A stretch of 64,000 nucleotides of DNA from contig JAJEKV010000053.1 of NCBI GenBank assembly GCA_021234155.1, forward strand, positions 1,251,307 through 1,315,306, given 5' to 3'. The stretch comes from Isoetes taiwanensis (taxonomy: Eukaryota > Streptophyta > Lycopodiopsida > Isoetales > Isoetaceae). The notes beneath the pieces were generated by a model, which was given only the letters and a program-made list of their open reading frames with translations, ran no database searches and was not told the origin of the DNA. Of the stretch, positions 31,311 to 50,390 are shown in pieces (position 1 is the first letter of the stretch; each line of letters begins with the position of its first letter). Made by a program: the position numbers and the translations under genes.

Positions 31311-31316
31311 GGGGAA

Positions 31317-31946
31317 TGTTGTAGTTGTCATGTAATAATTGTGAGTGATATTCTATTCTAATCTATGAGAAGCAAAGGGCGTGGATTAGAGCAAAGGGCA
31401 TGTTAAATGGTGTCATGTTATACAAAGCTTTGGAAAGACCTATGAGAAGCAGTGGCGTTAGTAGGTCAAAGTCAAAGTCAAAGGTGGCGGGTCAAAGTCA
31501 AAGTGGCGGGCACCCCCTACCCGGGTGTTGCTGGGCTCGCTAGAAACACACAGACACCCCCCCGCCCACCACTTAGGGTTTTGCGTTGACCGGTCAAAGT
31601 CAAAGTCAACTAGGGCCGAATTTTAAGGAAGGCAAGTCTATCTACTCCTGATTTTTAGGCAAGTTGGAGAACTTTCTATATGAAGGGGATGCACAATTTG
31701 ACAAGTGGATGCACCCGGATTGGAAGGTAAATATGGAGATAAATACTGGAGGAATGGATAGACAGGGGGGCTGACAGGTCGAGAGCTGAGCGCAGGAGTT
31801 GTATTTTTTTTAAAAGGTTTATGGATGAGTGACCATATTTTGGCTCCATGAACCTAAGCTTTTATAAGCCTTGTTTATAAAGTTGTCTAGCAAATTTGGT
31901 GAATAAAGCTATTGTTATACTGACTATTTCTGGAACAATTTCTACA
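31317..31946 (+). repeat. 3' LTR of the Copia element
   Basis: It starts TGTTGTAG after AAGGGGGAA and ends TTTCTACA before TTGAT. It is nearly identical to 26349-26973. Confidence 0.93.
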
Positions 31947-31951
31947 TTGAT

Positions 31952-32490
31952 ATGGCATTACAATGCGTCCTCGTCTTCAATGGCTTCCTAGAAAGTGCAG
32001 CTACAACTACGTTGAGCTTGCCTGGCTTATAAATTATCTCAAAGTCATATTCTTCGAGGAATTCCATCCACCTCCTTTGCCTCAAATTGAGGAGCGGTTG
32101 TGTAAAAATATATTGGAGGCTTTTGATGATCCGTATCTAGCTGGAACCTTCTTCCCAACAGATAGTGCCTCCAAATTCTTAAAGCTCTTACTATAGCCAG
32201 AAGCTCCTGATCATGCGTCGGGTAGCGCTGCTCTGCTTCATTCATCTTCTTCGAGTCATACGCCACTTCCCTTTCCTCCTGCAGAGGACTGCACCTGTTG
32301 CTATCCTACTAGCGTCTGTCGCCACAAGCTTATCTTTGGCTGGATCTGGCAACACTAGGACTGCGTTGTTGTCAAAGCTTCTTTCAAGGTCTCAAACGCT
32401 GTATGGGCCTTCTTTTGCCAATGACCTGCCCAATCCTTTATCTTTCCTGCCTGCTGTGTGTCGTATTGCTCTACTAGCCAAGACAACTGG
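31952..32490 (-). pseudogene. Chromovirus RNase H, degenerate
   Basis: Minus-strand reading gives AHTAFETLKEALT (RT connection, about 32400), then DKLVATDASRIATGAVL (first Asp), NEAEQRYPTHDQELLAIVRA (Glu) and [15 protein letters not shown], then [14 protein letters not shown] before the Copia insertion. The pieces are spread over three frames. Confidence 0.75.
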
Positions 32491-32491
32491 C

Positions 32492-32911
32492 CTAGGCTTG
32501 GACTTCAAAGGTTTCAGCTTCATGTACCATCCTTGGAGAAGCAAAGTTGTGGGTGCTCCCTGTATCTATCAAGACTATGAAAGATTTTGCTTTGGCTTTC
32601 CCAGTTGTTGAAATAACTTGATGCTGACTCTCAGCGTTCTCAGTGTCAATGGCGGCAAAAATATGGCACTCACCCTGGATGTAGTCTGGTGCATCGTCCT
32701 CGTCAGCATCCGTTGGTGTCTCCCATCCCATCTCCGCTAATGCCGCGTTCATCACCAAGGGGCAGTTGTTTGTCCTATGCCCTGGCTGGAAACACCTAAA
32801 GCACAACTGCTTTTCTATACACTCCTGCTTCTTCTCTTTGGAAATGGATTGCAAAAACTGTTTCACTGCCTTGGAATAGTTGGAACCCCCTCCTTGCTCT
32901 TTGAAGGTCAC
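32492..32911 (-). pseudogene. Chromovirus zinc knuckle and protease
   Basis: Open for 139 codons: CFRCFQPGHRTNNCP is a CCHC knuckle, followed by an acidic linker and FIVLIDTGSTHNFASP, the aspartic protease active site. Sequence then jumps to the RT-RNase H connection, so the whole RT domain has been lost, probably by deletion. Confidence 0.85.
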
Positions 32912-33082: not shown

Positions 33083-33615
33083 CTACAGGCTGACTACTTT
33101 GGATTCTGCTTCTGAGACCGTCCTAGGGTTGATTGCTCTTACTAGCTTCCGGATCTCCTCGTTCAACCCCTCTATGTAACCCTCTACTGCGTGCCTTTCA
33201 CTCAACTTCAGCACATAAAGCCTTAGTCTCATGAATTCTTCCGTGTACTTTTGAACTGATTTGTTGCCTTGCTGCAACCTGTAAAACTGCTGCATCATGT
33301 GACACTTATGTTCTCTTGGCACATAATGACGCTTGAATGCCTTAGCAAAATTCTTGAACTTGCAACTATCCCTGCTTAGTACATGTGCTTTGGAGTAGCC
33401 TTTCCACCAAATCCCAGTGGCTCCCTTCAAGTTGGCTGTAGCTACTCTGCCTTTGTCCTTGTCCTTCATGCCATAGGCATTTCTATACTCCCTCATCTCG
33501 TCCAACCATGCTTCTGCTTCCATTCCCAACCTATTATCCCCTGAAAATTGCTCCAGCTTTCTTGCCTTCCATACATTACTGAGCGTTGAGTCAACCTTCT
33601 TCTGATAGTAAGCAT
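33083..33615 (-). pseudogene. Chromovirus Gag
   Basis: Reads KVDSTLSNVWKARKLEQFSG in one frame, then EAEAWLDEMREYRNAYGM, TGIWWKGYSKAHV and VQKYTEEFMRLRLYV, a typical retrotransposon Gag core. It is open for 148 codons after 33529. The N-terminus is missing beyond about 33615. Confidence 0.85.
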
Positions 33616-34496
33616 GAATTCATTAATTAGAGAAATTTGGAATTCTCGTTTAGCATGAAATAGGTTAGCGGGTAGCCATATAGTGCAAAAACTACTACCA
33701 ATTGAGTAAAAGTTGGCATTTTTTTGCACAAATTCTGCAAAGGCTTCGGTCTTATTCGGAAATATAGTTTTTACTGCTAATGCAAAGGTTCACCGCGAGT
33801 ATAACGTAGTAGGAGGGAGTGTTAAAACTTCTCGCAAGAAGCGCGAACGCGATGTTTCGCAGCTGAAAGGAGACAAAATAATGTGCCTTTTATTAAAACC
33901 ATATGAGAGCATTGTGTTAAAAGAAGGTACCGAGGAGCAAGGATATCACACAAAATTCAGTATTTAAAGCCATATAATTGCTACAGAGGATCGCGGTCGC
34001 GATTATTTTTAGCATTAAACATATGGTAAAAGATATGGGTAAAGACAAAACCAAAGTTCCCGAAACAAAAATTTCCATTGAAGGAAGTAATATACAACAT
34101 AGTGTTTCAGATACTTGATCAGGTATCACACCCATTTCATTGGCCATGCGATTGACATGCTCTCTACCCAATTCCATAGCTTGTGTTGTGTCCATCTCTG
34201 AATAACCTGTGATGTCTGGAACTACAACACCCATGGCCTTTGCGATGTGCTGCAGATGTGAATCAGGCTCCCATTCTTCACTGTCCATTGCACTGCTCCC
34301 GCCTATAAGTTCGTTTTTACAAGAGCTCCGATCTTGCAAAGCAGATTCTTGGTCAATCATTGTGGATGAGAGAGCTTCGCTTCTTGCTGTACCTGATGCT
34401 CCACAGTGACCCAAGAACCTCATCTTGGTCAATCTCCATGTCTTTGGTTTCTAGTGCCTTCCATGTGTTCTTTCACGCCCGTATTCAAACTGATGT

Positions 34497-36086
34497 TCAA
34501 TGTTTTTCAAAGAAAGGCATGTACCCATCAAGCTTCTCATTAAGTGCACTCAATTTTTGAAAAGTGGGCTCTAGGGCTTCTATACCTTTTTCCGTCTCTT
34601 CAAGCAAGCGCTTTGTTTCTTGCATTCTCTCTTCGTAGGACTTAGCATCGAGGTTTTCCAAAATGGAATCCAACTTTGATAGATCTGTGTTTTGGGTGAT
34701 ACTGATGTCGGGTTGAGCTGGATCAGGCTCAACCCTCTCTGCTTTCGGCTCTTCCTCAAACCCATCGGCACTTGGATTGGCCATTTTATCAAGCGTTTCA
34801 AAGAACGCCCTCAGGAAACGGCACACTTTACCCGAACTTTTCGAAGCCACGCTCTTTTGCCTTGCATAAGAGCAACACGAAAGCCGTCCCAGCCGAAAAA
34901 GAAATCCGAACACAACCATCGGTCGGCACCAAATTGTTCAACAATATGGTAGGCATAGGAGGTTTTCAGCTGGCATTTCAATACAAGATCTCCTTCCATT
35001 GCCGCCCATTTGAATCTTGGTTTGCCTGTAAAAAGAGTCTGATATTTCTTTTTTATCTTCTCGTCGGCATCCTCATTACCTGTTAGCGGCATTGGAGGCA
35101 ATGGTGTTGACTTAGGAGCCTTGCCGGGTGTGGAGATAGGTGAAGCTCAACTCTGGTTGCCCAGGTGTTACCACGAACATCACTCCTGTTAATGCACATA
35201 TGACTAATAAAGTACTGATGTTCTTTCACCCTTCGTTTGCTCTCCCATCCCATTTCTTCATAGGAACCTAAAGATAGGTAGCCACCGCCCTGAATTTGCT
35301 TCTGACTGTACAAGCAATTTGGCAAATTCACTGAGCGCATGATAATAACCAAGTGATAAACTTTGGCAATCGTCATGGTAGCTATCCTTGTAAATAGATC
35401 TGTGTATTTCTTGCAATCCCATACCTTGTTCATCCCTCGGATGTCAATAAATATCAATGTCGCATTCTCTGACACTTGGGAGGAAGTAGGGATGCCATCC
35501 TTTGTCACTGCTATGACAATATTTTTCTTTTCCTTTCTTTTTCTAGCCTCTTCTGGCTTTAGAATATTCCTGATTGGCTCCAGAAAGGCTACAGGTAGGT
35601 TACCTAGTGTATGATCCTTGTTATAATTAGCCTTCACGTACTCTGTATGGGTGTCGATATATCCAATATTCTCTGTTCACCAAATCGGGAAAAGCACCCA
35701 AGCAATTCCTCCCAGCTATCGAAATCCTTTTGCAGTAAATTTGTGGCATAAGAAAAAATTTCTCGCCTCATAAAAGTGAGGGTTCTGATGTCAGTTGCCC
35801 GTTGTTTGCAATCAAATCTCCCGCTATAACCTGACTGCACCTTTAAATACGTCTTGCCTTCTATAATCTCATCGAGCAGCTGTGACACCTCTGCATTCGA
35901 CATACCTCGTAGCAACCGGAGCCAGGTCTTGTTAAAGAAGTCTTTGGATGGCTTGTCCGGAAACTCACCATGGTCGTCACTGAGTTTACGACTCACCCAC
36001 AGACCGGCAACTTCCATTAACTTCTTGAAAACCTTTTCATCCATAAAAATGAATTGTTTTTCATCCTTAAGCTCCTGCACTTTCAA
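34497..36086 (-). pseudogene. Unidentified transposon-like protein, C-terminal part
   Basis: Four consecutive minus-strand frames join through single shifts. Part 1 (36086-35634) has KPSKDFFNKTWLRLLRGMSN. Part 2 (35637-35083) has VKANYNKDHTLGNLPVAFLE, LIFIDIRGMNKVWD and GGGYLSLGSYEEMGWESKRR. Part 3 (35101-34811) has FKWAAMEGDLVLKCQL and GADRWLCSDFFFGWDGFRVA. Part 4 (about 34800-34497) is an acidic coiled coil (QETKRLLEETEKGIEALEP). I do not recognise the family. Codon-level conservation across the shifts shows it was once one protein of more than 500 residues. Confidence 0.45.
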
Positions 36087-36099
36087 GGTGGTCGTTGCA

Positions 36100-37747
36100 A
36101 TTTCATGGAAATCCTGCGAATTTCAAGGTCATCAAGATCGTGACGCGAACTTGGCGAGTAAAAACAAATAAATACCTTCCAAGCTGAAGTTTTAGCTGTC
36201 CCTATAGGTCCTTGTGGAGGGCAACCATAAGCCTTGTCTGTGATGGCGATGACGGTTTTCTGCGATTTTCAATCGGTGGCTCTGACACCGGTGTTTGCAA
36301 TTACCGTTGCATTGAATACTCAACTCTATATATTCCTTTGTCTAAGATTTCCGTTGAGCACCCTCGATCGTCTTCTAGCATATACTTTGGCAAATTCTAG
36401 ATTTCTTTGCTTTCGAACTTCGTAAACAATAGAACAAAGGAGTTGTGCAACAAGCGCAAATACTTGGTTTGCCGAAATAATATAAAATTTCTTGCCCTTC
36501 AAATCTTACGGATTGCTCCATGTCACCCTCTTCACGAAAGATAGACAACCGTCGGTCAAATCTACATAACGAGTGTCCAAAAGATAAAGAATTAGTTACA
36601 CGGTAATAGGGTCAAATGGAACGGCGTCGGCCCGGGGTGAGGACCTCTGTCGGGTATGTCTTGAAGCTTTTAACGGAGTTTGAACATGGTCATTTGACCG
36701 CGTTCGTGTGTCAAGTTTGCTGGTGCAGGTTCACAATCAAAAATAGAAATCTTTGTAAACCAATTAACCCCTAAGGGGTAGAACCTTTTGAACTGTTCAA
36801 GCTTCTGAGTGGTTTGCTCTGCCATCTTGCGTTCCTCTTCGGGATTGAACTTCAACTCGACTGGAATGGCAGGTGCGTGGTGCCATGGCAATGCTAGTCT
36901 AGAGGAAGCATCCGTAACTGGGGGGGGTTTGTGAACTGCTGGGCTGCGGGCTATCTTCAGTAGGTGTCAGATTCCTGAGGCTAATTCTGAAAGAAGGGAA
37001 CTTTTTTGGAATAGATCCACTGGTCAGATGTAGTGCTATCTGGGGCCTTCATAGCAATAGGAAGAGTAGGGTTAACAATACCGGGAGGGGTTTATAAGTG
37101 GATTGTGGTTCTTGAGCAATTTCTTTTGGTGCTGATGTCTCTCCCAAAGCAACAATAGGCTTCACACTCTTTTTCTTGGCCCGCGGCTCTTAGCCAATTA
37201 GTGTCCATCACGGAGGGCATCTTCTCGTCCGAATCGCTTTCAAGGCACGGCTTCGGAGGCTTCTTGTCCAGAGACAAACCATTTCTCGCATCTTAGAACC
37301 GAGCAATATGTCTCTGTTTCCCTTTATACGACAAAAGAGAGATTCATAGGATGGCAACAACCAGCCATAACCCTTAGGCGACGTGGGGACGTTTTTCCAC
37401 AATGGGTCGGGCTTGTTCATTTTTTGGGGTCGTCATCATAGGCGGGTCATAATTGCGCCATTTCAAAATGTACTCCAGAAACTGCAATGCTTGTGTGTCC
37501 TCAATGCTGCATATGATAGCATCTTGCACATTGTTCTTCGTGCCTTCCCACATTGCCACCACTATGCCAACTTGTTCAACGTCCTCAGCTTTTTTTCCAG
37601 TCCGCAGAAAGAAAAGCGGCCGCAGGTCCTTTCTGCGGTCACCCTTAATGTCTTGGTATAGCACATTGCAATCTCAATACACCATTTCCTTTCATTGGAA
37701 GGGGTTATATCTGACCGCTTCGACATCTGGTCCTCGGAAGAGAGCAA
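36100..37747 (-). pseudogene. Unidentified transposon-like protein, N-terminal part
   Basis: Likely the start of the same decayed gene. Pieces read ERKWCIEIAMCYTKTLRV (37680), KNNVQDAIICSIEDTQALQF (37520), NPEEERKMAEQTTQKLEQF (36840), FYIISANQVFALVAQLL (36470) and YGCPPQGPIGTAKTSAW (36200). Stops and frame changes separate them; some gaps could be introns. No domain assignment. Confidence 0.35.
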
Positions 37748-37827
37748 GTGCTGTAAACAAAAGCCTGTGGTGAGTGCCTGGTAGGCTGCATAATGTGGTG
37801 CAAGGAAAAGGTAGAAACTACTGTAGA

Positions 37828-39672
37828 GAAACGCGACCGCGATCCTGCCGAGCAGCTAAAATAGAACTCCACACTATCAGCGGCGCGACGTTTGTAGTAG
37901 CACTTAAGCCGCGACAAAGAAAACATCGCGGTCGCTGAACCTAATGACGTATACTACACTAGTACTCATGAAACATATAAAGAAAGAAAATCTATACTCG
38001 GCCCGGACGTGGCGCGATCTTGTTGAGCAGCTACACTTATGAAGACCGCTGTCTAGAAATTACAAAACCTATCAAGCAAGACCGCGGCCGCGATCTTGTT
38101 GAGCAGCTACACTTATGAAGAACGCTGTCTAGAAATTACAAAACCTATCAAGCAAGACCGCGGCCGCGATCTTTGCCGAAAGCAATATACTTATGAAAAC
38201 AATAGAAGCTCGAGTAGGCAACATCGCGGCCGCGATCTTGCTGAGCTGAAATGTTAGAAAATACCTTCTTTGAGGGAGTCCTTAGGTGCCATGGGATCGC
38301 GGGCGCTGGCTGAGTTCGAAATACGAGTCTTTTTGGAGTGGCTCGAGAAGGCGCTCGGAGGGCGAAGGCGCTAGGCGCTGAACGAAATCGCGGAGTCGAA
38401 ATTTGTTTTTAAAGGTTTGAAGTTTCAATTTATAGAACGCGGCCGCGGAAATTAATTGCCCGCCCCTCATAATTGCGCGTGAAAAAACGTGCCGGCCATA
38501 ATGGCGTCGTACGCCGGCAGTAATAATTACCGGCCGGCCGGCCGTATTTATTCCCTGACATAAATGCGGTCGTGCGAATATACCCGTCCGAAAAGGCAAG
38601 TAATCCGTAGGAAAGGTCCTTATCCACTTGGACGTCCGCGTTCAAATTCGGGGCGTAATTTCGGACCTGACACATTATGCAGCCATAAATGCCCCAAAAA
38701 AATCCGGTTTACGGACGGACAGTGACTGTAGAATTTGAAATCGAGAACAAACCAATTCGAGAAAGCGGGAAAAGCCAATTCAAATTTCATTGTTTTGCAA
38801 GATCTTCGAGGCGCTGGAGCTGCGCCTAAGCTGGGCCAAGTTCGGGCAAGGATTTGCTGCAGAATTCCGCATCCATTGAAGGCGCTGACGAGGGCGCTGA
38901 TAATCCGCTTGCAATCCGCCACTACACATTCAGAATTCTGCAACTGCATCGAATTCAGGGTTTCGGGCGAGGTAAAAGGCCTATTCTGATGCATATCCCT
39001 CACTGAAGTGAACTCAACGTCTATGTTGCACTGAATTTTAATTATAACTACAACCCTATGTATTGCATGGATTGATAAGATACCTCCTGATACTTTGTTG
39101 CAACTATGTAAAAATAGATGTTCTAAGCAAAACTGTGCACTCTGGTGTGTTTATTATACAATGTAAATGTGTTTCAGGTATATGCTTTCTTTCTCCATGT
39201 GGATGAAACTAAACACTGTTTTTATGACACTGCAGCTTCTGACGGGTACAAGTTGATGTTGACGCCACCGGCTACAAGTTGACGTTGACGCCACCGGCTA
39301 CAAGTTGACGTTGATGCCACCGTATTCTGTGAGGTATGAGTAATGCTTTATTCTGTAAGTCAGTCGTATAACTTTGGTGCTCCACGAGATCGCGGTCGCG
39401 ATACCTTCAACCGTCTACACTTGCTATTGACCAATGAACTCCCAGCTATCGACAACTTTGAGTTGAAACCACTAGCTAGCCTCGAAATGTGATTTGCACG
39501 AGTTCTTATCGAAACAGCTAGTGTGAATGCTTGCAAAAAGCGCGACCGCGTTCTTACCCATGCTCGATAAGATCGCGGTGGCGATAGTCCCGAGCATTTT
39601 TTATTTTTCAGTTCCTATTTTTTGTAGTGGTTTGTGATCACAGTGCTTTCTGCTTACGAGGATCGCGGCCGC
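37828..39672. repeat. Array of GC-rich palindromes
   Basis: Copies of GATCGCGGCCGCGATC or close variants lie at about 37829, 37924, 38012, 38084, 38160, 38223, 38304, 38440, 39388, 39540, 39567 and 39660. Three of them belong to a 76-bp tandem repeat (units start at 38016, 38092 and 38168) containing TTGTTGAGCAGCTACACTTA. There is no gene here. The motif also occurs at 33841 and 33988. Confidence 0.75.
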
Positions 39673-39697
39673 GCTATTCACGACCTCTTGTTTGCAG

Positions 39698-39976
39698 GAT
39701 GGCTGATGTAATTCCGCTTTATCTGCTGGGGAAAAAAGTGGCAGAAGGAAGAGTCCACAATTTCGAGCGCCATCACAATTCGACTGTCCCGGAGGGTATG
39801 GTTGTCGTTTCAATTGTGAATGTTCTGGATGGACAGTTACCGCTACCAATTCCCGAAATGGAAATAGAAAAAATGGGTGAAGCTGTGGGGACTTTTGTGT
39901 TGTGGTACAAGAAGGACATTGCTGCTCAACTTGATAGAGATGAGGAAGCATGCACCCCACGGTCGGATAAAGCATA
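39698..39976 (+). pseudogene. DUF8039-like transposon-associated domain
   Basis: MADVIPLYLLGKKVAEGRVH is followed by a Val/Ile-rich stretch, then LPLPIPEMEIEKMGEAVGTF and VLWYKKDI. This pattern (VPEG, LP.PI, GEAVGTF.. W) matches the DUF8039-type domain of plant transposon and Ulp1-like proteins, as I recall it. A splice-acceptor-like TTTGCAG directly precedes the ATG, so it may be an internal exon. One of the GATCGCGG palindromes lies 40 bp upstream. The frame ends at 39976, and decayed coding sequence continues in other frames. Confidence 0.55.
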
Positions 39977-40019
39977 GGCCGGCGGGGACGGAGGGGAATG
40001 AGGGGTTAGCCCGATGTGG

Positions 40020-40976
40020 GGAGCCGAATCATGTGCAAGGGCTTTCTAGAGATGAGTTAGTTGAGAAGGCGTGCACACTCATGCATGAATCTTTGCTACA
40101 TGGCTTATGCCTATGGTGTTATCGTTTTTGCCGATCAAACCATCTTTGTGTCGGCGTGAAGTTAGGGGAAGGCTCGATAGCTGCTACTATCATGAACATT
40201 TTTCCAATGCACGAAAAAAAGATCTCTATCTTGTTGCCGGGCACGTGCGAGAAATGCCCCAACCGCATGACCTTGTGAGATGGCCCATAGCCCTCGTGCT
40301 CGTTGATAACATTCCGGTTTCTACTCTTGTGGTTGCGGTGAAGGAGAAGGATGTGGAGAATGAACCTTACTCCATTAGACCCGAAATTGGCATCACCAAA
40401 AAGAGACCTTCTGAAGATGGTCAATCGGAGACCCGAACACGCCCGACCACGAGTAAATGTGAAAGAAAAACTAGTCTTGAGGCTATTCTAGACTTCGGTC
40501 ATCAACATCTTTGCATGAAACGATCTTTGTGCAAATTTTACATCCCGGAGATAGCTTGCATGAGAACCTTTTCTTTGGAACATGAAGTCCTCGGGCGCGC
40601 ACAACTTTTGCATATAACATGCTAGATCTTTGCTCACGAAAATGGTGTAGTCCATAAACCGATGTTGAATAACAAACGGTGTCGCGTGAAAGCATGGCAT
40701 AAAGCCTATGGCATTCCCATTTCCACTTTTACAAGTGGAAGAAGCTCTTCAATGATGGCCCGCGAATTGCCGAGCACGGAAATCTTGGGTCTAAAGCCAA
40801 GGTCTCATACTTTGGTCGGCAATCTTGTGCTATCTATGTTCATAGATGAAAACGCAGAGACGATGCCACACCTCGAAAATTACGGCGAGGGTAGCGGACA
40901 AAATGTTAAGAGGCTACCTTACATCTTGACTAAGAAGGATATACACCAAGAAGTAGATATTTCCGTTCTGAGATGA
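40020..40976 (+). pseudogene. Continuation of the transposon-like gene, unidentified
   Basis: Frames 39877-40278, 40107-40625 and 40662-40976 overlap and appear to be one decayed coding region: LCLWCYRF, then RKKDLYLVAGHVREMPQPHD, then AYGIPISTFTSGRSS. The spacing suits the part that follows the DUF8039-like domain in plant transposon proteins, but I see no catalytic motif, for example no His-Asp-Cys protease triad. Confidence 0.35.
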
Positions 40977-41099
40977 CGAGGCAAGCATATTTCTCCTTAG
41001 TCATTTTAAATGCGCTTGGAAAGAGAATCATTCAGAGGTATCAATAGCTAAGAGGATAGCATTTTCCAAGTGTAACACACATATTGTCATAAAGGAAAA

Positions 41100-42826
41100 G
41101 CTTGCTAAGACCCGGAGATCCAAACGAAAGAAGGGTACTTGCAATAGAGAGGAAATCGCATATGATGGCCCCTGATTTCTTGCGGGGAGCCTTTATTGGT
41201 CTGGAGAGCTTTGTCGCATAGATCTCCCGAGCATGCTTTAACCATTATACATGATAAGATGGATCAGAATAAGACCATGGTCCCTCGCCTAGAGAAGCTA
41301 GCAAAGTCTCAGATGGAGGGGTGAGCGATTGAAGGTCGGTGTTACAAGTGCTCTCATGCACGCCATGGTATAGGTGCCTTGGGCCACTTCTCACTTTGAC
41401 CTCTGGCCTGATGATTCTAATTTTCATGTGGGATCCTTGAATCATACCTTGAAGACACTGGAGAATAAATCTGAGGATAATTGGGGCCATTTGAGAGATA
41501 CTGATCGTCCTGAAAGCAGCTGGGGTGCAGCAATTTTAAACACAGATAACCTCAGGACAAAAATGATGAATGGCAGTAGAAATGATTTTATGCCTCCTAT
41601 CAAAGGCCCCATGGTAGCAAACAAGTTGCCTAGGAGGCTTTACTTGCAGCTAGATAATTGCTTTCGGTCGAATAAGAATAGATATCTTTTCTCTTACTTG
41701 TCATACTTGGTTTGGTTAGGTGTATTTGATCAAGTGCAGCTGGGATTCATGATGGTTGGACACACCCACGATGACATAGATGCCCTATTTGGAAACTACT
41801 CTACTCTAATGAGAAGATCAGATGCATTGACTATTCCGGAGCTTATGCAACTCTTCAGGCAGTGTAGTTCAAAGGCTCCTTCGCCTTACCTTGTGACAGA
41901 GGTTCCTGATTGGAAGGAATTCGTGAAAGGTTTTATCCCTGATAAGAAGGACCGTTTATGTGGTCACTTGGAACCTCTACTCTTCAAGTTTTGCATGAAG
42001 GATGGATGGCCACTAATGTTCTACAAGATGAGGCCAGGGGCATAGGGAGTGGCTCCAAAAAGGGAATCGAATGTGGAAGGAGGATGCCCAAGGTTTACCT
42101 ATGATTCCGAGAGGGTCACCTAAGGTCCTGCACCATATGGGAGCTTGAAAGATATAGGTGCATTAAGAGCTTCTATTGCCAAGTACATGATGCCTTTGGG
42201 CAGCTATTTCTAGAGCTGGCGATAAGTCATGGTCCAACACATATATGAATGAAGTTATTGACTCTTGGGTCCACCTTGTTGCGAGTGCTTGGTGACGTGC
42301 AGCCCGGTGAGAGCTCATTCAGATTTCTGGCCCAAAGACCGGGCAAAGTGCATTGGAAGAACCCGAAAGAGTGTTTGTGGATGAGCACATTGAAGCATCT
42401 CATTACGTTGGGCCTTTCTCGGGTAGACCCAAGAACCCAGTTGAAATATTCGACCCCTACCAAGATGTCAAGAAGGGAATGCTCTTGCTAATCAGACCAC
42501 ATGATAACTGCCCGACATGGATGGGTTTTGCCGAAGAGGACCCAATAGAGGACCCTAATCTCCCACATTACGAAGAGGTGTTTGTCTCTTGGTTTGAACC
42601 TATTGCCAGAAAGGGAACCTCATATGCAATGCAGTATAGGGATTGCTGGAGCAAGAATTGGAGACCCAAACCTAATGACCCGCCACGCTACCAACCTTTG
42701 AAAACAATAGACTATGGTTGGGCCGTAGAGACCAGGCCATTGTCAGTGGTGATCCCCAGTAGTGTTCGGGCTCAGTTGCAAGAATTAGTGGCTAAAGAAG
42801 CTAAGGACGATGATGAGAACTCTTGA
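41100..42826 (+). pseudogene. DUF7869-like (putative DDE-type) transposon protein
   Basis: A first part (about 41230-41330) reads IIHDKMDQNKTMVPRLEKL. The main frame (41374-42045) has LQLDNCFRSNKNRYLFSYLS and FMMVGHTHDDIDALFG, the hallmark DNC..NKN and GHTH.DID motifs of DUF7869 proteins found in transposon-like genes of plants and animals. After shifts, 42353-42826 holds EVFVSWFEP and YRDCWSKNWRPKPN, the usual C-terminus, and stops at 42826. Asp residues in both motifs could be catalytic, which is inference. Two or three frameshifts inactivate it. Confidence 0.7.
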
Positions 42827-42964
42827 GGTATGCAATGCTCTTTTACATAATTACTATATCATTCATAACATGAAAGTTACAATAGACTAGTTATTATTTG
42901 TTACGCTCTGCGTTTTCCATCTCAACACAAGAGCTCTTACACTATACAATGCTAAACAGGTGAT

Positions 42965-43207
42965 TCATTCATCTTCAGGATCTGTAGTAGTGATCCCTGA
43001 TATCTCATAGCTCATTCGCTCAGGAAGCCAAATCAGATGGATCATTACACGAATTGACGCAGGGCAACGAATCTCAGCGCCCAAAGCTTTTCTTCGCAGG
43101 TAGGGATCAAGAAGAAGATGCCTGTCTAGGCAACCAACAAGATCAGAGTGGCTCATTGAGCACTTGATCGCCTCGATGTGGTGAATTGATGAAGGCAAAT
43201 AATCCAT
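42965..43207 (-). CDS. Small unidentified protein, 80 residues, copy A
   Basis: An intact frame beginning MDYLPSSIHHIEAIKCSMSH and including CLDRHLLLDPYLRRKALGAE. It sits behind a TATA box (CACTATAAAAGC on the minus strand, about 43240-43251), roughly 35 bp before the ATG, and a 95-bp upstream region that is repeated before copy B. The family is unknown to me. It is transcribed toward the end of the DUF7869 gene and could belong to either neighbouring element. Conservation of both promoter and frame in two copies argues it is a real gene. Confidence 0.5.
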   Translation of the reverse strand: MDYLPSSIHHIEAIKCSMSHSDLVGCLDRHLLLDPYLRRKALGAEIRCPASIRVMIHLIWLPERMSYEISGITTTDPEDE

Positions 43208-43589
43208 GGGAGAGGAATGAACTTTAGCCCCGAAGTGAGAAGCTTTTATAGTGAGGTAGAATTATTGAGGTGAATTATTGGGGTAGACTTGAGGCCCATT
43301 ATTGCTCGTGTATAAGACCGTTGTATAAATACAAGTATAATACATCTTTCGTATGGATATATGTATGCGTACTAATATGCGTATGTTTCAAAACATGTTT
43401 GCTTGACGAATTTAGCTATGATTGAATTCAATGACAGCTTGCAGAATAAGTGGAGGTGGGATAGCACATCGTTACAATATACTCAGTTAAGGTGCATTGA
43501 TATTACATCCTTAATCGAGAATGCTATTACATCCTTACTTAGTTATTAGGTACCCATGTCATTATTACATTATTAGCGGTGCGGATTCA

Positions 43590-43831
43590 CTCGTCATCAA
43601 CATCAAAGCTCGTGATGCCATTCACTCATAGATCTCCGATCGGGAAGCCGATAAATATGGACTTTAACGCTGAGTGAGCTTCACCTGCAAGCACTAGCGG
43701 GTCCATCAGCTTTAGATAAGAGCCATGGATCAAGCTTAACGCTATTTCTAAGCGCGTTCGCCCGGATCGTTGTAGCTCAAGTAACACTTGAAAGAGCGGA
43801 TGTGCTCGGGGCGAGGCATCGAGGAAGCCAT
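43590..43831 (-). pseudogene. Small unidentified protein, copy B, broken
   Basis: Begins MASSMPRPEHIRSFKCYLSY, which aligns with the start of copy A (IHHIEAIKCSMSHSD), but stops after 27 residues. Later pieces in other frames still match copy A's end. The same TATA box (CACTATAAAAAC, about 43866-43877) lies upstream. The two copies are about 624 bp apart. Confidence 0.55.
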
Positions 43832-44105
43832 GGAAGATGAATGGCCTCTACCCCCTCGTGAAGCCGTTTTTATAGTGAAGTAAAATTATTGATGTGAATT
43901 ATTGGCGTACAATGTAGGGCCATTATTGAGCTTATACGAGTGTCATGTACACGTACAAGTATAACACAAAATTTGTATGTATATGTGTATGTTAATTACC
44001 TCATGTTTGTTGGGGTCGAGTACTAGGTGAAAGTATTCGTGCTTGAGCAAATAAGGTGTGCTCAAAATTCTCAAAATTGCGTTATTTTATCCAATTAATG
44101 AAATC
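43832..44105. promoter_or_regulatory. Duplicated upstream region of the small gene
   Basis: TTTTTATAGTGAAGTAAAATTATTG...GTGAATTATTGG at 43867 repeats 43243-43300 closely. It holds the TATA box and no frame. The rest up to 44105 is AT-rich. Confidence 0.5.
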
Positions 44106-44110
44106 ATGCT

Positions 44111-44587
44111 TTAGTCAGATTGTGTCCTGCCCCTATCATGGTTTGGACCCTCTCGGTAGTCTTGCCTCTCTTCCTCCTGCTCTTCCGATCCGGAATCAGA
44201 GTCTGAACTAGAGTCGGAGGACCCTGAGCTAGGTGATCTCCTTCTCCAGCTTCTCTTCCTTGGCTGAACTGTTCGGCCGGCTGGGGTTTCTGGCAGTTGC
44301 ACATTCTGGTCCTGTCCTCCTATTGCTGCTACTGCCATCAATGCTCTTATCTCATGAATGTCTGTCTTGATCTGGGATAGCTCCTTTTCTGGTGTTGGTG
44401 CATCAAACTCTTGGTACAAGTTTCTTGGTCGGAATTGCCTTGGTGGAGTGCGCTCTTGGTCACGTTGTCCTTGTTCCTCAACATTTCTAGGTGCTCTAGT
44501 TGCATCCACATTAGATTGAACTCTGATGATTAGTTCCTTGTTTGGGTTGTTGCACAGGTTTGTTAAATGATGCAATTGTGGGGGCAA
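44111..44587 (-). CDS. Acidic, Arg/Ser-rich ORF of the histone element
   Basis: A 158-codon frame: CNNPNKELIIRVQSNVD, then ELSQIKTDIHEIRALMAVAA (short coiled coil), then a basic run RKRSWRRRSPSSGSS and Ser/Asp/Glu repeats (SDSSSDSDSGSEEQEEERQD). It follows the second gene at a distance of about 60-110 bp and might be its last exon, but no clear splice sites are seen. The tail composition suggests a nucleic-acid- or chromatin-associated protein; function unknown. Confidence 0.4.
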   Translation of the reverse strand: MPPQLHHLTNLCNNPNKELIIRVQSNVDATRAPRNVEEQGQRDQERTPPRQFRPRNLYQEFDAPTPEKELSQIKTDIHEIRALMAVAAIGGQDQNVQLPETPAGRTVQPRKRSWRRRSPSSGSSDSSSDSDSGSEEQEEERQDYREGPNHDRGRTQSD

Positions 44588-44647
44588 AATTATATGTCAA
44601 GAAAACATAATTAAGATCATCTTTTATATTCATGGATATAATACTAT

Positions 44648-46209
44648 TTATACATTCAAGATATTAATCATGAAAATTGAAAACATTTTTAATTTTATTC
44701 TTGAAATTTCTTCAAGTAATCTGGGTTGTCCTCCAAAAATTTCTTCACTTCGGCCGTGCCGATTGTTCGCCCTAGGTTCCTGAGGATATTTGTGGCCATG
44801 CCTCCTTGAAGTGCGGTCACCAAGTCTTCGATCTGATGTATAGGCTGCAGTAGCTGCCAATCTGCCCTGCCGTCTATAGGGGACCGCAAAGTCGAAGATA
44901 CTCAATGCTATTGTTCTCTTGACAAGGATGACATGATCAATGTTTGGGGCCATACGAGCATGACTTCTGAATCCTGAGAGAGCAATGAGCATAAAGACTC
45001 CTTCTTCACCCCGTGGGCTGAATTGATGGTGTATAACCGCTATCCTTCCATCAATGAGCAAGGGGAGGTAGAACCTAAGGGCTTTGTCATGCCTTGCCTC
45101 TTCGCCGGTTCTAATTGCTACTCTGTGTCTTCCGGAGTACTCATCAACCGGTACTTCCACCATCTCTCTGTAATCACGGTACATGGAAGCTGTCAGGTTG
45201 ATGCTGCCTTCCGCTAGTGCTGGTGCCGATGCTGATGTACTAGGTAGGAGTGCGGACGTTGATTTTCCTCTGATTCCCATGCGCTCCTGAATTGCTAAGA
45301 ACTCCTCTTCCGAAGGCAACTCCTGTTCAGCCATCATCTGTCTGATGCCGGTGTAGGCTTCAATATCCGTTGATGTTTGGCCGGTGTATGTCCGGGCTTC
45401 CCTTATGCTGATAGGAAAGTCCTGTGTTTCGCAGTCGATGAAGTCATCGAGATCCGGATGTTCCCGTAGGAGATGCAGAAGTTCGTCTACTCTATAGCCC
45501 CTGTCTCGGCACTCTGGGAGGTTCTTGATGTCGTGGAGGGTTAATTATGCCTCCCCTTGGATAATCACTGGGTCCAAGCTTGTGATTCCTTGCCCAAGTG
45601 GTGGGGTTGTTCTTGTGGCTCTCAGCCCTTCTTCGAAGCGCTGGAGTTGTTGCTCTGCTTGCTGCCTTTCTTGTACCAGGTCTATGTCGGCGATGTCTTC
45701 CGCGTCCGACTCGCATCCTTCCTCTTCTTCTTCCTCTGCCTCCTCATATGCAAGGCGCATCTGTTCTTCTTCAGCTGCTGCCATGGCCATTGGCTCGACG
45801 TCTAGGGGTTGCACAGATGGTTCTCCTATCTGGGTTTGGGCTCGAAGAGATAGGAAGATAGCTACGGCTGCTGTGTAAGAAAAATATCTCCTCCTATTGA
45901 CAGCTATGGACATATAGTTAGGCAAGTGGCTAGCCTTGTTTTCTAGGTACTTGTCTATATTGGGGATGTCTTGCAGAGCTGTCTTGAGGGCCATGCTTGG
46001 AGCAAAGTATCCTATGCAAGGTGGGAGCTCTCTAGAGAAGGTCCTATCTTGGCATGGAAATCAAACATGATATCTTGGTAGAAGGGGATGGCATTGATGG
46101 TAGCTTCCACATCAACCTCCTTCTGGAAGACGGCAAAGACGGAGTTGATGTCGGCCTCGGCCACATGAGCTGGGGCGCTGTACCATCGCCTAAATTTAGT
46201 GGTTGCCAT
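44648..46209 (-). pseudogene. Second gene of the histone element, unidentified ~520-residue protein
   Basis: ATG at 46209, chosen because the TATA box at about 46320 lies 110 bp upstream. It begins MATTKFRRWYSAPAHVAEAD. After a shift near 46031 the frame runs from GYFAPSMALKTALQDI through RRRYFSYTAAVAIFLSLRAQ and an acidic stretch (EEAEEEEEEGCESDAEDIAD). A TAA at 45543-45545 interrupts, and the same frame continues with LTLHDIKNLPECRDRGYRVD to FSPRGEEGVFMLIALSGFRS. A last shift near 44890 leads to EVKKFLEDNPDYLKKFQE. I recognise no domain. It could be the structural protein of the element, but that is a guess. Confidence 0.5.
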
Positions 46210-46328: not shown

Positions 46329-46500
46329 ACAAAACCCTAATTTTGGAAAATTTCAAAGTTGGGGAATCCCTATAATTCTAAGATATTGCTATGCAATTCA
46401 CAGGCTAATTATGTTGAAGAGTGCATTCTAAGGATCCTATTGCAACAAATTCCATCTAATTTGGGGAAAGTTAGGACAAATTAGGACAAATATGGTGTGA

Positions 46501-46949
46501 CCACTCACACAGTGCGCGAGGAGCAAATCCGAGAATGGCGAATTTGGTCTGGGCGCACTCTGTGAGGGGTGGGACCTTGTTTGGGTCGAGGATGATGCCA
46601 AACATGCAAACTAAGGGTAGAATCCTGCTCATCTCGTCGATATAGGTCGGATTGTGCCCTTACTTTCTTCATTTGGACAACTTTTGGCATAGATTAGGGT
46701 CGACCACTCACACAGTGCGCGAGGAGCAAATCCGAGAATAGCGGATTTGGTCTAGGCGCACTCTGTGAGGGGTGGGGCTCCATTTGGGTTGGCCAATTTC
46801 TACAATCTAAGGGTCAAATCCTACTAAACACAATGAGCTGAGTCGGATGGTGCCCTTATTTTCTACATTTGGATAATTATTGGCTAAGATCGGTGCTTGA
46901 CCACTCCGAGAATGGCGGATTTGGTCTGGGCGCACTCTGTGAGGGTTGG
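46501..46949. repeat. Promoter palindromes of the second gene (three copies)
   Basis: Copies lie at 46501-46572, 46704-46775 and a shortened one at about 46901-46949. Each is a ~72-bp palindrome. The outer arms CCACTCACACAGTGCGC and GCGCACTCTGTGAGGGGTGG pair, the inner arms GAGCAAATCCG and CGGATTTGGTC pair, and about 5 nt form the centre. The sister copies are at 49622-49873, upstream of the H3-tail ORF. Confidence 0.85.
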
Positions 46950-47088
46950 GGCCAAAAACACTGAGTTTTGTTCCAATTTTGTTGATTCCAAATGCAGAAC
47001 TTAGTAATACACCCTAATTAAACATGATTTAACACATTAATTTGACAAAACCATAAATTTATATTTACAAAAATCATTTACAACAGAC

Positions 47089-48120
47089 TCAATAGTCTTC
47101 TTTCTTAATGTACTTGGCTAGCCTCATGTCCTTGGGCATGCATGTTACCCTGTTTGCGTGGAGTGCGCATGCTACCAAATCTTCAAAGTGATGAACAATC
47201 CTCTGCTCGGCTGCCTCCTGTAGCGCGAGTAACATGTCATCAGTCACGCGCTTGCTCTTGTCAAATTCCTGCAAAATCTCGCGAGTGAGTCTCGCGAAGG
47301 GGGCTCTCGGTATCAAAAGTCCATAGCTCCTCTGGAAATGCCTGATCTCCCGAGCAGCTCTGGCAAAATATGAGTCGGCCTTTCTCCTGATCGGCTTCCT
47401 CGGAGGTGCTGGTTTCTCAGGGGGCGGCTTCAGTGTGTTCTTCTTGGTTGGTCTGCCTCCTTCGACATAGGTGACCTTGTGCTCCTCATAGTACTTCGAG
47501 TATTCCTCGTACATTTTCATGTACTGGGTATACTCTTTGAGTTTCTTCCTATATTCAAGCTTGTTCTTGAGTACATAGGACTCTCGCGCAGGCCTCGGCT
47601 TCTTCTTGTCTGCTGCAGGGTGCTTCGGGGACGGCCACCTTGGGTACGGGGGTACCTCTGCTACCGGCTCCTCCTCTTCATTCCTTGCATTCGAGGGTCC
47701 TGAGCCCTCAGTGGGAACAGGGACCCTCATCTCCTCATCTGACTCAGTGTCAGATGAGGATGGCGGCTTATCGGGCTATTGCTCCCAAATGACGACGCTT
47801 TTGGCCGGCGTCGTCTTCAACTTACGCCCGGTGTCTTTAGGCAACTCGGGGGCTTTCCCCTTGTCTACCTTCTTCTGCAAGCGCTCCTCCCTGCGCTTCC
47901 TACTTCTGCCTCCTCTCCTCTTTCTGTTTCCGGCGCTCCTCCTTCTCTCGCCGACGCTCCTCCTTGGTTTTCTTGACCTGTGTTACTTCGTCCTCCCTTT
48001 TTCTCTTCCGCTCTTTCTTGTCTAATTTCTTGAGCTCCCTCTCTATCTCCCCCCTTAGTTCTTCTGCAGCTCCTTCATCTTTGTGGCCCGGCTCGCTCTG
48101 GCTGCCGGGGCCCTTCTATG
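47089..48120 (-). pseudogene. Histone H3-fold protein, body and C-terminal histone fold
   Basis: The C-terminal 88 residues (47355-47092) align without gaps to the H3 fold: REIRHFQRS (alpha-N), LLIPRAPFARLTREILQEF (alpha-1), LLALQEAAEQRIVHHFED (alpha-2) and CALHANRVTCMPKDMRLA (alpha-3). By hand about half the positions equal canonical plant H3. Upstream are a basic coiled stretch (ERELKKLDKKERKRKRED), a Ser/Asp/Glu patch (PPSSSDTESDEEMRV) and a Tyr/Lys/Glu region (KEYTQYMKMYEEYSKYYEEH). A TAG at 47776-47778 and a shift near 47914 break the frame. The matching start with the H3 tail is at 50092 on the other strand. A CenH3 relative is possible, but loop 1 is not longer than in H3. Confidence 0.85.
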
Positions 48121-49407
48121 CCTTCCTTGCCTCGCATTTAGGGTTCTCTTGAGCCATTCCGGCCAAGCTAAGAACCAATTTCGCATTGCCAGGCTCTGAA
48201 AAGTCGCCTTTGCACAACAGATCGTCGAGTAGCAGCAGCCTTCAACAAGATCAGAAGCATGGATGCATTCCGAGGATCTGGAGCAGGTCGAGTACCAGGT
48301 AATCAGTCATTCTGTTGTGCAAAGCCGCCTTTGGGCTAGACAATAAGGTAGTTTAGCATATTCATTCAGCCGTAGAGACCTTGTAGATTCCAAGATCATG
48401 AGCCCTAACAAAGGAACCTAACCTTGGATGTTTAGGTAGGTAGATTAGATGATATTATTCATTTCAATTCTGTGATGATGTCGGTATTTCACTCTGTGAC
48501 CTCCATGTATTGGGAAGGGGGGTAGAGGCCTAAAGCCTGTGTAGCAGATGATTCTAGGTAGCCTACTAGTTCCCAGTTACATGCGGCCTGTGCACAATGA
48601 GCCCGTCTGGCTGTGGGTGGAGGGGCCAAGCCGATGAAAAAGGGGGACTTGTCCCATCACAGAAGAGTTCCTCTGGTGTGTAAAGCCTACCAGGGACCTT
48701 AGTGAGCTAGGCTTAATGGCTTGCCACTGCGTGTGGGCAAGGCATGAGCTCGACACCTTTGGGGCGATGCATCGCCTTCCATGAGGTTAAGTCGAATAAG
48801 GGCAGTGGCCCTCTAGCCACCTGTGATGGGCATGCATGCCCCTGGGGAAGAGGTGACTCTCCTCCTGCCTCATCGAGGCTGGGGAGATGCAATCCAGTAG
48901 TAGCCCTCTTGGCTATGTACCCGGCAGGCTACGGCCCGGTCCCAATACTTTTCAGCCTACTCTGCAAAGTGTGCACAGGAGGGGCAGATGGAGTGGACTA
49001 CCCTCAGCTATATTCCTATGCCAGCCAAATCTAGTTGCCATGAATTCTGTCTGCAATGACCTCTGGAAGCCCATGCCGTCAGTCAACCCCCTTGAGTCTG
49101 AGCTCTGGGTAGGATCTCCCTTGTTGCTATTGTTCATGTTGATGTGTTGTATATGTGATGATCATGATGTGTTCACCCTTCGAGGTGATCGTATTGATAT
49201 AGTATATTATCTGCTCATGTTTATTCACGCTTCCGCAGCTAGGTTGACCCGAAGGGAGACGGGTGAATGACACATCCACTCTTCCCTTGCTGGCTCATTC
49301 CACTGGGAGTGGTGTCAGGTGGATGGCCCCTGCTAGTTTGGCTGTCAGGGGGAATGCTCCGTCTTCTGATATGATGTGTGCATCATATAAGGAGTAGGGA
49401 CGTCACA
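48121..49407 (+). repeat. LTR of the histone element, copy 2 (inverted, lacking its U3 end)
   Basis: Matches 9004-10290 in inverse orientation and ends GGGACGTCACA directly before the primer site. Its promoter end is not at 48121, where the H3 body begins. The missing ~100 bp are at 50283-50390 in the opposite direction. Both breakpoints carry GGAAGG, so an inversion through short inverted homology explains it. Confidence 0.75.
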
Positions 49408-49408
49408 G

Positions 49409-49420
49409 TGGTATCAGAGC
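49409..49420 (+). promoter_or_regulatory. Primer-binding site, initiator tRNA-Met, of the histone element
   Basis: TGGTATCAGAGC lies one base after the LTR end CGTCACA. It shows that this LTR is a 5' LTR and that the H3-tail promoter region belongs to the element's leader. Confidence 0.9.
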
Positions 49421-49621
49421 ATGATCTTGGTACACCAAGATCGAGCACTGACCATTTTCCTATTAAGACTAACAGTAGACTTCAAGTCTTGGGAATAGCC
49501 ACCCAAGCATGAACCCCGAAAATTGGAAATTTTTTTCCAATTTCTAGTGCAGTAAGTAGGTTAATGCTAAGTTAATCGAAAGTTTTAGCAAGAACTCAAC
49601 CAAATTTGGCCAAAAAGAGGT

Positions 49622-49873
49622 CACCCCTCACAGAGTGCGCCTAGACCAAATCCGCCTTTTTCGGATTTGCTCCCCGTGCACTGTGTGAGTGGTGGACCCA
49701 AGTTGACCTAGTTAGATGCATAATTTAGCTAATCTAATGGTGCAGTTCAGCTTCTCCCTTAGATTCTAGCTAGTTTTGCATATTAGATCACTAAGAAGTG
49801 ACCCCTCACAGAGTGCGCCCAGGCCAAATCCGACATTCTCGGAATCGCTCCAGGCGCACTGTGTGAGTGGTGG
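49622..49873. repeat. Promoter palindromes of the H3-tail gene (two copies)
   Basis: Copies at 49622-49695 and 49801-49873 have CACCCCTCACAGAGTGCGC pairing with GTGCACTGTGTGAGTGGTGG and inner arms around CAAATCCG/CGGATTTG. They are the reverse-oriented sisters of 46501-46949. Each gene's set lies some 220-290 bp before its ATG. Confidence 0.85.
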
Positions 49874-49979
49874 ATGCTTTCTGGCTACATAAACCTAATG
49901 TACTTATCATATCTACACTAATACCTCCTAGAATGACATAATATGAAATTGCAGGTCCAAACCCTAAAATCCCCCTACC

Positions 49980-49986
49980 TATAAGT
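49980..49986 (+). promoter_or_regulatory. TATA box of the H3-tail gene
   Basis: CCTATAAGTAGACAATTAGG, with AAACCCTAAAA (telo-box) about 25 bp upstream, lies 112 bp before ATG 50092. The spacing and flanking words match the second gene's promoter. Confidence 0.7.
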
Positions 49987-50091
49987 AGACAATTAGGGTT
50001 CCTCATTTACACTTACCTCCTCCAACAAACAGTTCCTCGTCCCAGAAGACGATTTTTAGGCACCAGGAGTCGGATTGCGTTGATACAAAAC

Positions 50092-50289
50092 ATGGCCCGG
50101 ACCAAACAAACCGCCCGCATTGTAGTGCCCGAAGACCATGTGAGCGCCCAGGAGCTAGCAGCCCGACAGAAGGCCAGACAGGCTCAGGAGCGGGCCAGGC
50201 GGAGACAAGATGCAGAGGCCAACCCAGACGCCCAAGAGGAGGCCCAGGAGTGTCAGGAGGAAGAGCAGGCACAGGAAGGAAAACCCTAA
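50092..50289 (+). pseudogene. Histone H3 tail-like N-terminus (start of the H3-bearing protein)
   Basis: The ORF begins MARTKQTARIVVPEDHVSAQ: residues 1-8 after Met are identical to the H3 tail (ARTKQTAR, with R2, T3, K4 and R8), and the rest is unrelated. K9, K27 and their surrounding motifs are missing. What follows is an Ala/Gln/Glu/Arg helix-prone stretch (QKARQAQERARRRQ, then EEAQECQEEEQAQE). The frame stops at 50289 because LTR sequence is joined on at about 50283. Undoing the inversion would place the charged body and H3 fold directly after it. A host histone gene is excluded by the divergence after residue 8. Confidence 0.75.
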
Positions 50290-50390
50290 ATGCAAAGAGA
50301 GAAAAGTTTTAGGGTTTAAGGGGAAGCCCTTATTTAGAAACCCTTAGGGTTAGGTTAGACCTTGGCCAAATGGGGTTTAGCCATTTGGCA
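50283..50390 (-). repeat. Displaced U3/promoter end of the histone-element LTR
   Basis: Matches 10291-10390. On the minus strand it starts TGGCCAAGGTCTAACC and has a TATA-like TCTAAATAAGG (TCTATATAAGG in the other copy). Here it points toward the H3-tail ORF. Confidence 0.7.

What the first reader, a model, noticed from the sequence alone, without database searches (positions are those of the whole stretch)
47089..50289. A retroelement gene that joins an exact histone H3 tail to a histone H3 fold
Seen: an ORF at 50092 starts MARTKQTAR, identical to H3 for eight residues after Met, and an ORF at 47089-48120 ends in an 88-residue gapless H3 fold. Known: K4 of ARTKQTAR is the mark read by PHD, chromo and WD40 readers; the H3 fold pairs with H4. 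Inference: one protein of roughly 400 residues with an H3 tail tip, a long charged linker replacing K9-K36, and an H3 core. An LTR element carrying this could enter nucleosomes, steer integration to open chromatin, or titrate H3K4 readers. I know of no described element of this kind.
Basis: partly seen in the sequence, partly recalled or inferred. Interest (0 to 1): 0.95.

Follow-up and report, generated by a model that had tools for sequence, protein, structure and literature searches.

The report
Histone H3-like gene in a retrotransposon
A decayed retrotransposon carries, ahead of its capsid gene, what looks like a captured histone H3: the exact H3 tail tip, a charged linker and an H3 core, hinting that some jumping genes may bring their own chromatin protein.

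Summary
The H3 fold (47089-47730) is on the minus strand and the MARTKQTAR ORF (50092-50289) on the plus strand, so this copy cannot make one protein. An inversion explains it: the 1.3-kb LTR body (48119-49407), the primer-binding site (49409) and the tail ORF lie in a ~2.16-kb segment (about 48121-50279) flipped relative to the rest of the element; a missing LTR piece lies beyond its far end, and a second, unbroken LTR copy (9004-10390) shows the original order. Read back, one strand gives LTR, PBS, hairpins, tail ORF, charged linker, H3 fold, hairpins, then Gag of a Ty3 chromovirus (capsid, weak protease, RNase H, integrase-chromodomain, LTR). Three nested transposons have matching target-site duplications; at two of their empty sites a frame runs on open. 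This copy is broken. No other copy was found, but the source genome could not be searched. Function is inference: most likely an H3 variant that pairs with H4 and keeps K4 but lacks the K9/K27 context. Nearest known: single H3s of DNA viruses.

The parts
50280..50368 (-). Piece 'E' of the 5' LTR, still in the element's own orientation, cut off from the LTR body by the inversion
   Evidence: 82 of 89 positions identical to 10302-10390; contiguous and co-oriented with the LTR body in the other copy
48121..50279 (+). Inverted segment (LTR body, PBS, leader hairpins, tail ORF); AGGAAGG at both ends in inverted orientation
   Evidence: LTR body and PBS are opposite in strand to gag and integrase
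48119..49407 (+). 5' LTR body, ends ..GACGTCACA
   Evidence: 97% identical to 9004-10291 in inverted orientation
49409..49420 (+). Primer-binding site TGGTATCAGAGC (initiator-Met tRNA type, recalled), 1 bp after the LTR
49618..49873 (+). Two 78-nt hairpin units upstream of the tail ATG
50092..50289 (+). Tail ORF: MARTKQTAR followed by a charged stretch; element leader up to about 50279, the last codons read into LTR piece E
47731..48120 (-). Charged linker region (72% purine), frame broken
47089..47730 (-). Open frame with linker end, a long predicted helix and the H3 fold (core 47092-47352)
46498..46953 (-). Two full hairpin units and one truncated unit between the H3-like ORF and Gag, same orientation in element sense as those before the tail
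44112..46209 (-). N-terminal part of Gag, no Pfam match above cut-off, broken by stops/frame changes
   Evidence: in frame with the Ty3 capsid at the empty site of the nested DNA transposon
33083..33529 (-). Gag capsid region (Retrotrans_gag, Ty3_capsid)
   Evidence: E=1.5e-15 and 8.3e-13
32492..32911 (-). Zinc knuckle and aspartic protease (weak, below curated cut-offs)
31947..32490 (-). RNase H remnant; RT core not seen between protease and here
   Evidence: RT_RNaseH E=1.4e-18 for a peptide read here; frames
21920..22963 (-). Integrase C-terminal part with Tf2-type SH3 and chromodomain (integrase core rve only 0.014, below cut-off)
   Evidence: SH3_Tf2-1 4.7e-22, Chromo 6.9e-7
9004..10390 (-). 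3' LTR (unbroken copy; its start may lie 39 bp further out at TGTGGAACC)
33610..44111 (.). Nested DNA transposon carrying DUF7869; terminal inverted repeats, 4-bp TSD TAGT
26349..31946 (+). Nested Copia element, TSD TTGAT
23352..25546 (-). Nested short Copia-type element; no TSD established
10535..21661 (+). Nested Ty3 element, TSD TGTTA

Best explanation
What it is (well supported, about 0.8 on its own): the leader ORF of a decayed Ty3 chromovirus, lying between PBS and gag, that descends from a captured histone H3 gene. It encodes the exact H3 tail tip, a long charged linker in place of the rest of the tail, and an H3 core; a later ~2.16-kb inversion split it. How it works (inference, about 0.35 given the first part): the protein was made from the genomic RNA, lost its Met to expose ARTKQTAR, paired with host H4 through the intact core and entered host or element chromatin as an H3 variant. 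Keeping the K4 tip but lacking the ARKS contexts of K9 and K27, such nucleosomes could be read and written as active chromatin but not take the repressive H3K9/K27 marks, which would favour the element's transcription (anti-silencing). Shown: order and strand after the inversion, fold, tail tip. Inferred: one frame, expression, H4 pairing, deposition, effect.
For: Fold: Pfam 1.2e-21, PDB H3.3 4.2e-22, AF2 model with the H3 helices, block-mean pLDDT 91-96 over residues 141-210 and 72-75 over the alphaN region, Foldseek to nucleosome chains E=6.1e-8, 52% identity. Of 19 histone residues looked at, 12 are kept: R49, R52, R69, R72, R83, C110, H113, R116, T118, K122, D123, L126 (roles recalled). 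The 46 retained core sites are those that 24 relatives conserve (0.78 vs 0.48, 0 of 20000 permutations), and 23 of 41 new residues occur in a relative at that column (null 10.9, P=0.0002). Tail: unique 8/8 match, expectation ~1e-7; start context CAAAACATGGCC; no ARKS in the tail frame or in any of the three sense frames of linker and fold. Element: LTR, PBS and inversion; gag, RNase H, chromodomain on the minus strand; three nested insertions with TSDs, two empty sites open in frame.
Against: One copy, broken: the joined tail-linker reads on only 15 codons past the junction before a stop, and the charged stretch and the fold are in other frames. Neutral decay of H3 to the same identity leaves no stop in the core in 9-11% of simulations, and replacements are not milder than neutral by BLOSUM62, so selection rests, whose relatives were found with this query (bias). 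Replaced: K56, R63, K64, F84, K115, R129, R131; alphaN approach altered. LTR divergence (0.030) is lower than that of the nested Ty3 element (0.095; Fisher 7e-8), which a simple single insertion does not allow; partial LTR conversion (piece E 0.083, Fisher 0.02) is an ad hoc answer. TSD of the element itself not found. Nine ATGs lie between PBS and tail ATG. No expression or function data.
Confidence: 0.5

Rival explanations
1. Same gene, but the H3-like protein acts in the particle or at integration: a charged histone-like packaging or tethering factor that condenses nucleic acid or brings the preintegration complex to K4-marked chromatin, beside the integrase chromodomain.
For: It lies directly before gag on the same strand; the fold ORF has net charge +15 over 213 residues (K+R-D-E); the integrase ends in a chromodomain. 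DNA viruses with histones exist (PMC9145170, section 9 and passages).
Against: No Gag fusion seen: a stop follows the fold and the first candidate Gag ATG is 880 bp on. The tail stretch itself is not basic (net -4 over 63 codons). An exact N-terminal H3 tip is not needed for packaging.
Confidence: 0.2
2. Passive capture: a host H3 gene was transduced into the leader, drifted and never had a function for the element.
For: LTR elements pick up host genes (recalled); only one copy known here and it is broken; neutral simulations leave a 9-11% chance of no stop in the core and replacements are not milder than neutral.
Against: Retained core sites are the conserved ones and replacements are those tolerated in relatives (biased relatives); tail tip 8/8 while core is 53% identical.
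Confidence: 0.2
3. Tail ORF and fold ORF are two separate small genes of the element (or separate exons), not one protein.
For: No single open frame joins them in this copy; the fold ORF is open from its own ATG at 47730 for 213 aa.
Against: Tail precedes fold on the restored strand with only the charged, purine-rich linker between.
Confidence: 0.2
4. Tail and fold are unrelated: MARTKQTAR is a chance or convergent peptide of a retroelement ORF and the fold is a degenerate host H3/CenH3 locus hit by LTR insertions.
For: Opposite strands at present.
Against: Expectation of the tip ~1e-7; both in one element after the inversion that the LTR/PBS orientation requires.
Confidence: 0.05

Closest known systems
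Single H3 histones of DNA viruses (xenomavirus, Dishui Lake phycodnavirus, Sylvanvirus and others; review PMC9145170, section 9 read)
   Same: A viral genome encoding an H3-like protein without the other core histones, three of six with extended tails; the review thinks all six likely to form nucleosomes with host histones
   Different: Those are DNA viruses, fold identity 73-87% to a possible host H3; here an LTR retrotransposon, core 46/87 identical to H3, exact ARTKQTAR tip, then a charged linker instead of the tail
Ty3 chromoviruses (name recalled; domains)
   Same: LTR, PBS, Ty3 capsid, RNase H, integrase with C-terminal chromodomain
   Different: An extra H3-derived leader ORF and hairpin arrays between PBS and gag
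Ogre/Tat elements with an extra ORF before gag (recalled, no call)
   Same: Additional ORF between 5' LTR and gag
   Different: As far as I recall that ORF is not a histone and those elements lack an integrase chromodomain
Bracovirus H4 CvBV-H4 (PMC9145170, passages only)
   Same: A virus-derived genome encoding one core histone with an extended tail that enters host nucleosomes
   Different: H4, not H3; about 87% identical to insect H4 in the fold
H3-tail mimics such as influenza NS1 (recalled, no call)
   Same: Protein with an H3-tail-like peptide
   Different: There at the C-terminus and without a histone fold (recalled); here N-terminal, exact, with an H3 fold

Membership tests
Histone H3 family | Core histone fold with significant match to PF00125/H3 | tested here: met
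   E=1.2e-21, 4.2e-22, structure
Histone H3 family | N-terminal ARTKQTAR tail on the same protein | tested here: inconclusive
   Present and exact, on the same strand as the fold only after the inferred inversion; frame broken
CenH3/CENP-A | Loop 1 longer than in canonical H3 (recalled criterion) | tested here: not met
   Gapless to H3 through loop 1
CenH3/CENP-A | Groups with CenH3 in a tree | tested here: inconclusive
   Pairs with P0032, a named centromeric H3 of a bee, at 82/83, but the tool flags this as two long branches meeting; end branch 1.13, no starred set holds it
Ty3 chromovirus | LTRs and tRNA primer-binding site | tested here: met
Ty3 chromovirus | Ty3-type gag, protease, RT/RNase H, then integrase with chromodomain, on one strand | tested here: inconclusive
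   capsid, RNase H, SH3 and chromo found in order; zinc knuckle, protease and integrase core below cut-off; a further integrase piece matched no family; no RT core seen in the frames read
Ty3 chromovirus | Target-site duplication around the element | tested here: not met
   CCATT vs GGAGG in element sense; the outer edge of the 5' LTR may be truncated
Ty3 chromovirus | LTR pair at least as diverged as those of nested insertions | tested here: not met
   K2P 0.030 vs 0.095 for the nested Ty3 element and 0.061 for the short Copia type, but 0.027 for the nested Copia and 0.083 for LTR piece E
Single viral H3 (as a functional class) | Enters host nucleosomes | not testable with these tools
   needs biochemistry

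The most novel reading that the evidence does not exclude
A lineage of retrotransposons (presumably of plants) encodes its own H3 variant that carries the K4 reader/writer platform but has shed the K9 and K27 contexts, so that nucleosomes on the element cannot be silenced by host H3K9/H3K27 methylation; with an integrase chromodomain, the element both reads and supplies H3.
Probability: 0.25. Interest if true: 0.95.

Novelty: new variant of a known kind. Interest (0 to 1): 0.8.

Why it matters
Host silencing of transposons works in part through methylation of H3 tails (recalled). A retrotransposon that encodes an H3 with the activating tip and without the repressive sites would be a counter-measure written in the silencing system's own substrate, and would add retroelements to the mobile genomes known to carry single histones. 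It would also be a natural test of which parts of the H3 tail are needed for deposition and for silencing. I know of no described retroelement of this kind, but only three literature searches were answered, so absence from print is not established.

Tried and rejected
Rejected: (1) fold and tail as one present-day ORF: opposite strands. (2) Hairpin arrays as terminal inverted repeats of a DNA transposon carrying the H3 gene: they look inverted only because of the inversion; in element sense the units point the same way. (3) The region just behind the tail ORF as part of a gene: it is an LTR piece. (4) LTR copy at 9004 as an unrelated solo LTR: it follows the chromodomain gene by ~400 bp of 3' region once the nested Ty3 element is set aside; not fully excluded because of the LTR ages and missing TSD. 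(5) CenH3 origin: loop 1 has H3 length; the tree is unresolved. (6) Stop-codon and BLOSUM arguments for selection: not significant.

Led nowhere: Rfam on 46000-50600 at E up to 0.1 (0 matches); viral contigs, 12 and 4 pattern stretches, none confirmed; PDB search of a Gag N-part ORF (0); AF2 of the Gag N-part alone (mean pLDDT 36.6). Protein database: 35 hits among 180 candidates and 3 among 187, all histone-type. I read 11 sequences and aligned 25 of the 38; none of these has this linker, and the one with an ARTKQTAR tip among those read, P0001, is an H3 of ordinary length (136 aa). P0005-P0009, P0014, P0017, P0020, P0022, P0024, P0025, P0030 and P0031 were left out of alignment, tree. Of three peptides sent only the RNase H one matched.
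Full report
1. What is there. ORF 47089-47730 on the minus strand (213 aa) ends in an H3 fold, and a plus-strand ORF reads MARTKQTAR from 50092. The fold matches PF00125 at 1.2e-21 and a solved Histone H3.3 at 4.2e-22; from REIR to the C-terminus 87 residues align without gaps, 46 identical. AlphaFold2 gives a helix at 50-83 and then four helices at 121-208 as in H3, with block-mean pLDDT 91-96 over residues 141-210. Foldseek's best hits are nucleosome chains (E=6.1e-8, 52% identity); among viral models the best is an iridovirus H2A-like protein (1.5e-6), with clandestinovirus H3 third at 3.6e-5. ARTKQTAR is matched 8/8 once in the window; base-shuffled windows reached at most 5/8 (45 such hits in 20 shuffles); the expectation for MARTKQTAR is 1e-7. 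The opposite strands mean that no single protein can be made from this copy as it stands.

2. The inversion. Self-comparison shows a 1.29-kb block at 48121-49408 repeated in inverted orientation at 9003-10291 (97%). In the copy at 48-49 kb it ends ..GACGTCACA and is followed after one base by TGGTATCAGAGC, the initiator-tRNA-type primer-binding site of many plant LTR elements (meaning of the motif recalled). So it is an LTR. In the copy at 9-10 kb the LTR continues by about another 90 bp (piece E). In the copy at 48-50 kb piece E is missing from the LTR but present at 50280-50368, on the opposite strand, just behind the tail ORF. Both edges of the flipped segment carry AGGAAGG in inverted orientation, 50273-50279 on plus and 48127-48121 on minus. 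The same conclusion follows without the second LTR: gag and integrase of the element are on the minus strand, whereas this LTR body and PBS are on the plus strand.

3. Order after setting the inversion aside. On one strand: LTR, PBS, about 200 bp, two hairpin units, about 220 bp, tail ORF, charged linker, H3 fold and stop, about 135 bp, three hairpin units (one truncated), about 290 bp, candidate Gag ATG at 46209. Joining tail to linker at the shared motif gives a frame that continues 15 codons and then stops; the strongly charged stretch and the fold lie in the two other frames. The linker DNA is 72% purine, so its charged translation is not by itself proof of coding.

4. The element. Minus-strand ORFs between 46209 and 44114 have no Pfam match above cut-off. 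The last of them ends where a DNA transposon begins: 33610-44111, ends AAGCATGA.TTCATTAATT, 4-bp TSD TAGT on both sides. At the empty site the frame runs on unbroken into a Ty3 capsid (Retrotrans_gag 1.5e-15, Ty3_capsid 8.3e-13). Then follow a zinc knuckle and protease (below cut-off), RNase H (1.4e-18), a nested Copia element with TSD TTGAT whose empty site is again open, a short Copia-type element without an established TSD, an integrase end with Tf2-type SH3 (4.7e-22) and chromodomain (6.9e-7) (the integrase core only 0.014), a nested Ty3 element with TSD TGTTA, and the second LTR. An RT core was not seen in the frames read. No exact copy of the PBS 12-mer lies near the gag: the window holds it at 26975 and 49409 on plus and 25358 on minus only. 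Hence the H3-like ORF is a leader ORF of a chromovirus. An AT-rich stretch at about 25.6-26.1 kb, with no readable pol frame, is unexplained. The organism was not identified; 'plant' is my presumption.

5. What does not fit. The two LTRs differ by K2P 0.030, the LTRs of the nested Copia by 0.027, of the short Copia type by 0.061, but of the nested Ty3 element by 0.095 (52/587 vs 37/1286, Fisher 7e-8). A nested element should be younger than its host. Piece E differs by 0.083 (7/89; Fisher against the body 0.02), which would fit partial gene conversion of the LTR body, but this is an afterthought. The flanking 5-mers of the two LTRs do not match. It remains possible that the LTR at 9 kb belongs to another insertion of the same family; the inversion argument does not depend on this.

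6. Was it selected? Core sites kept are those that relatives keep (46 sites, mean 0.78, against 0.48 at 41 replaced sites; 0 of 20000 permutations), and 23 of 41 new residues are seen in a relative at that column against 10.9 expected (P=0.0002) (24 relatives used, all found with this query, which biases the test in its favour). Against: the chance of no stop codon in the core under neutral decay is 9-11%, and replacements are not milder than neutral (BLOSUM mean -0.49 against -0.56, 95% range -1.05 to -0.10). The tree does not place the fold safely. On balance past selection is likely but not proven.

7. Mechanism. Of 19 residues looked at, 12 are kept, among them R69, R72, R83, R116, T118 (DNA side) and C110, H113, D123, L126 (H3-H3 side) (roles recalled). 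Assembly with H4 is therefore plausible. The chaperone-recognition stretch of alpha2 is altered (SHAVL to DDMLL), and the alphaN approach is changed, so deposition need not follow the normal routes. K4 and its context are exact; K9 is replaced by I, and ARKS occurs neither in the tail frame nor in the three sense frames of linker and fold. My preferred inference is an anti-silencing H3 variant; packaging/tethering and passive capture remain open. The hairpin units (26 pairs, the 16 outer pairs kept in 4 of 4 full units; no double compensatory change) stand 220-290 nt before both ORFs and may serve the translation or transcription of each; that is a guess.

8. Known relatives. The review PMC9145170 (abstract and section 9 read, other parts as passages) describes six single viral H3s with 73-87% fold identity, three with extended tails, and bracovirus H4. 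Its main text has no word starting with 'retro'. Literature searches answered: 11 papers; 4 papers; 0; none shows a retroelement-encoded H3 in its title or in the start of its abstract. The other searches timed out.

9. Verdict. A real and unusual finding: an H3-derived leader ORF in a Ty3 chromovirus, rearranged and decayed, known from one copy.

Noticed in passing
window 33610-44111: A 10.5-kb DNA transposon with ~26-bp terminal inverted repeats, 4-bp TSD TAGT and internal GCGGCCGC-type repeats carries DUF7869 (PF25273, E=1.8e-40) on plus and unmatched ORFs on minus: ties the DUF7869 domain to a transposon.
   Followed up: partly
window 486-2681: RT (PF00078, 2.2e-11) followed by a weak tyrosine-recombinase match (PF00589, 0.0022, below cut-off): possibly a DIRS-like element (name recalled).
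   Followed up: no
window 46498-46953 and 49618-49873: 78-nt hairpin units repeated at about 175-205-nt spacing before both leader ORF and Gag.
   Followed up: partly
window 23352-25546: Short Copia-type element with ~190-bp repeats and a 477-aa gag-like ORF (Retrotran_gag_2, 9.3e-18).
   Followed up: no
window 52835-53338: Irregular tandem array of ~29-nt units.
   Followed up: no
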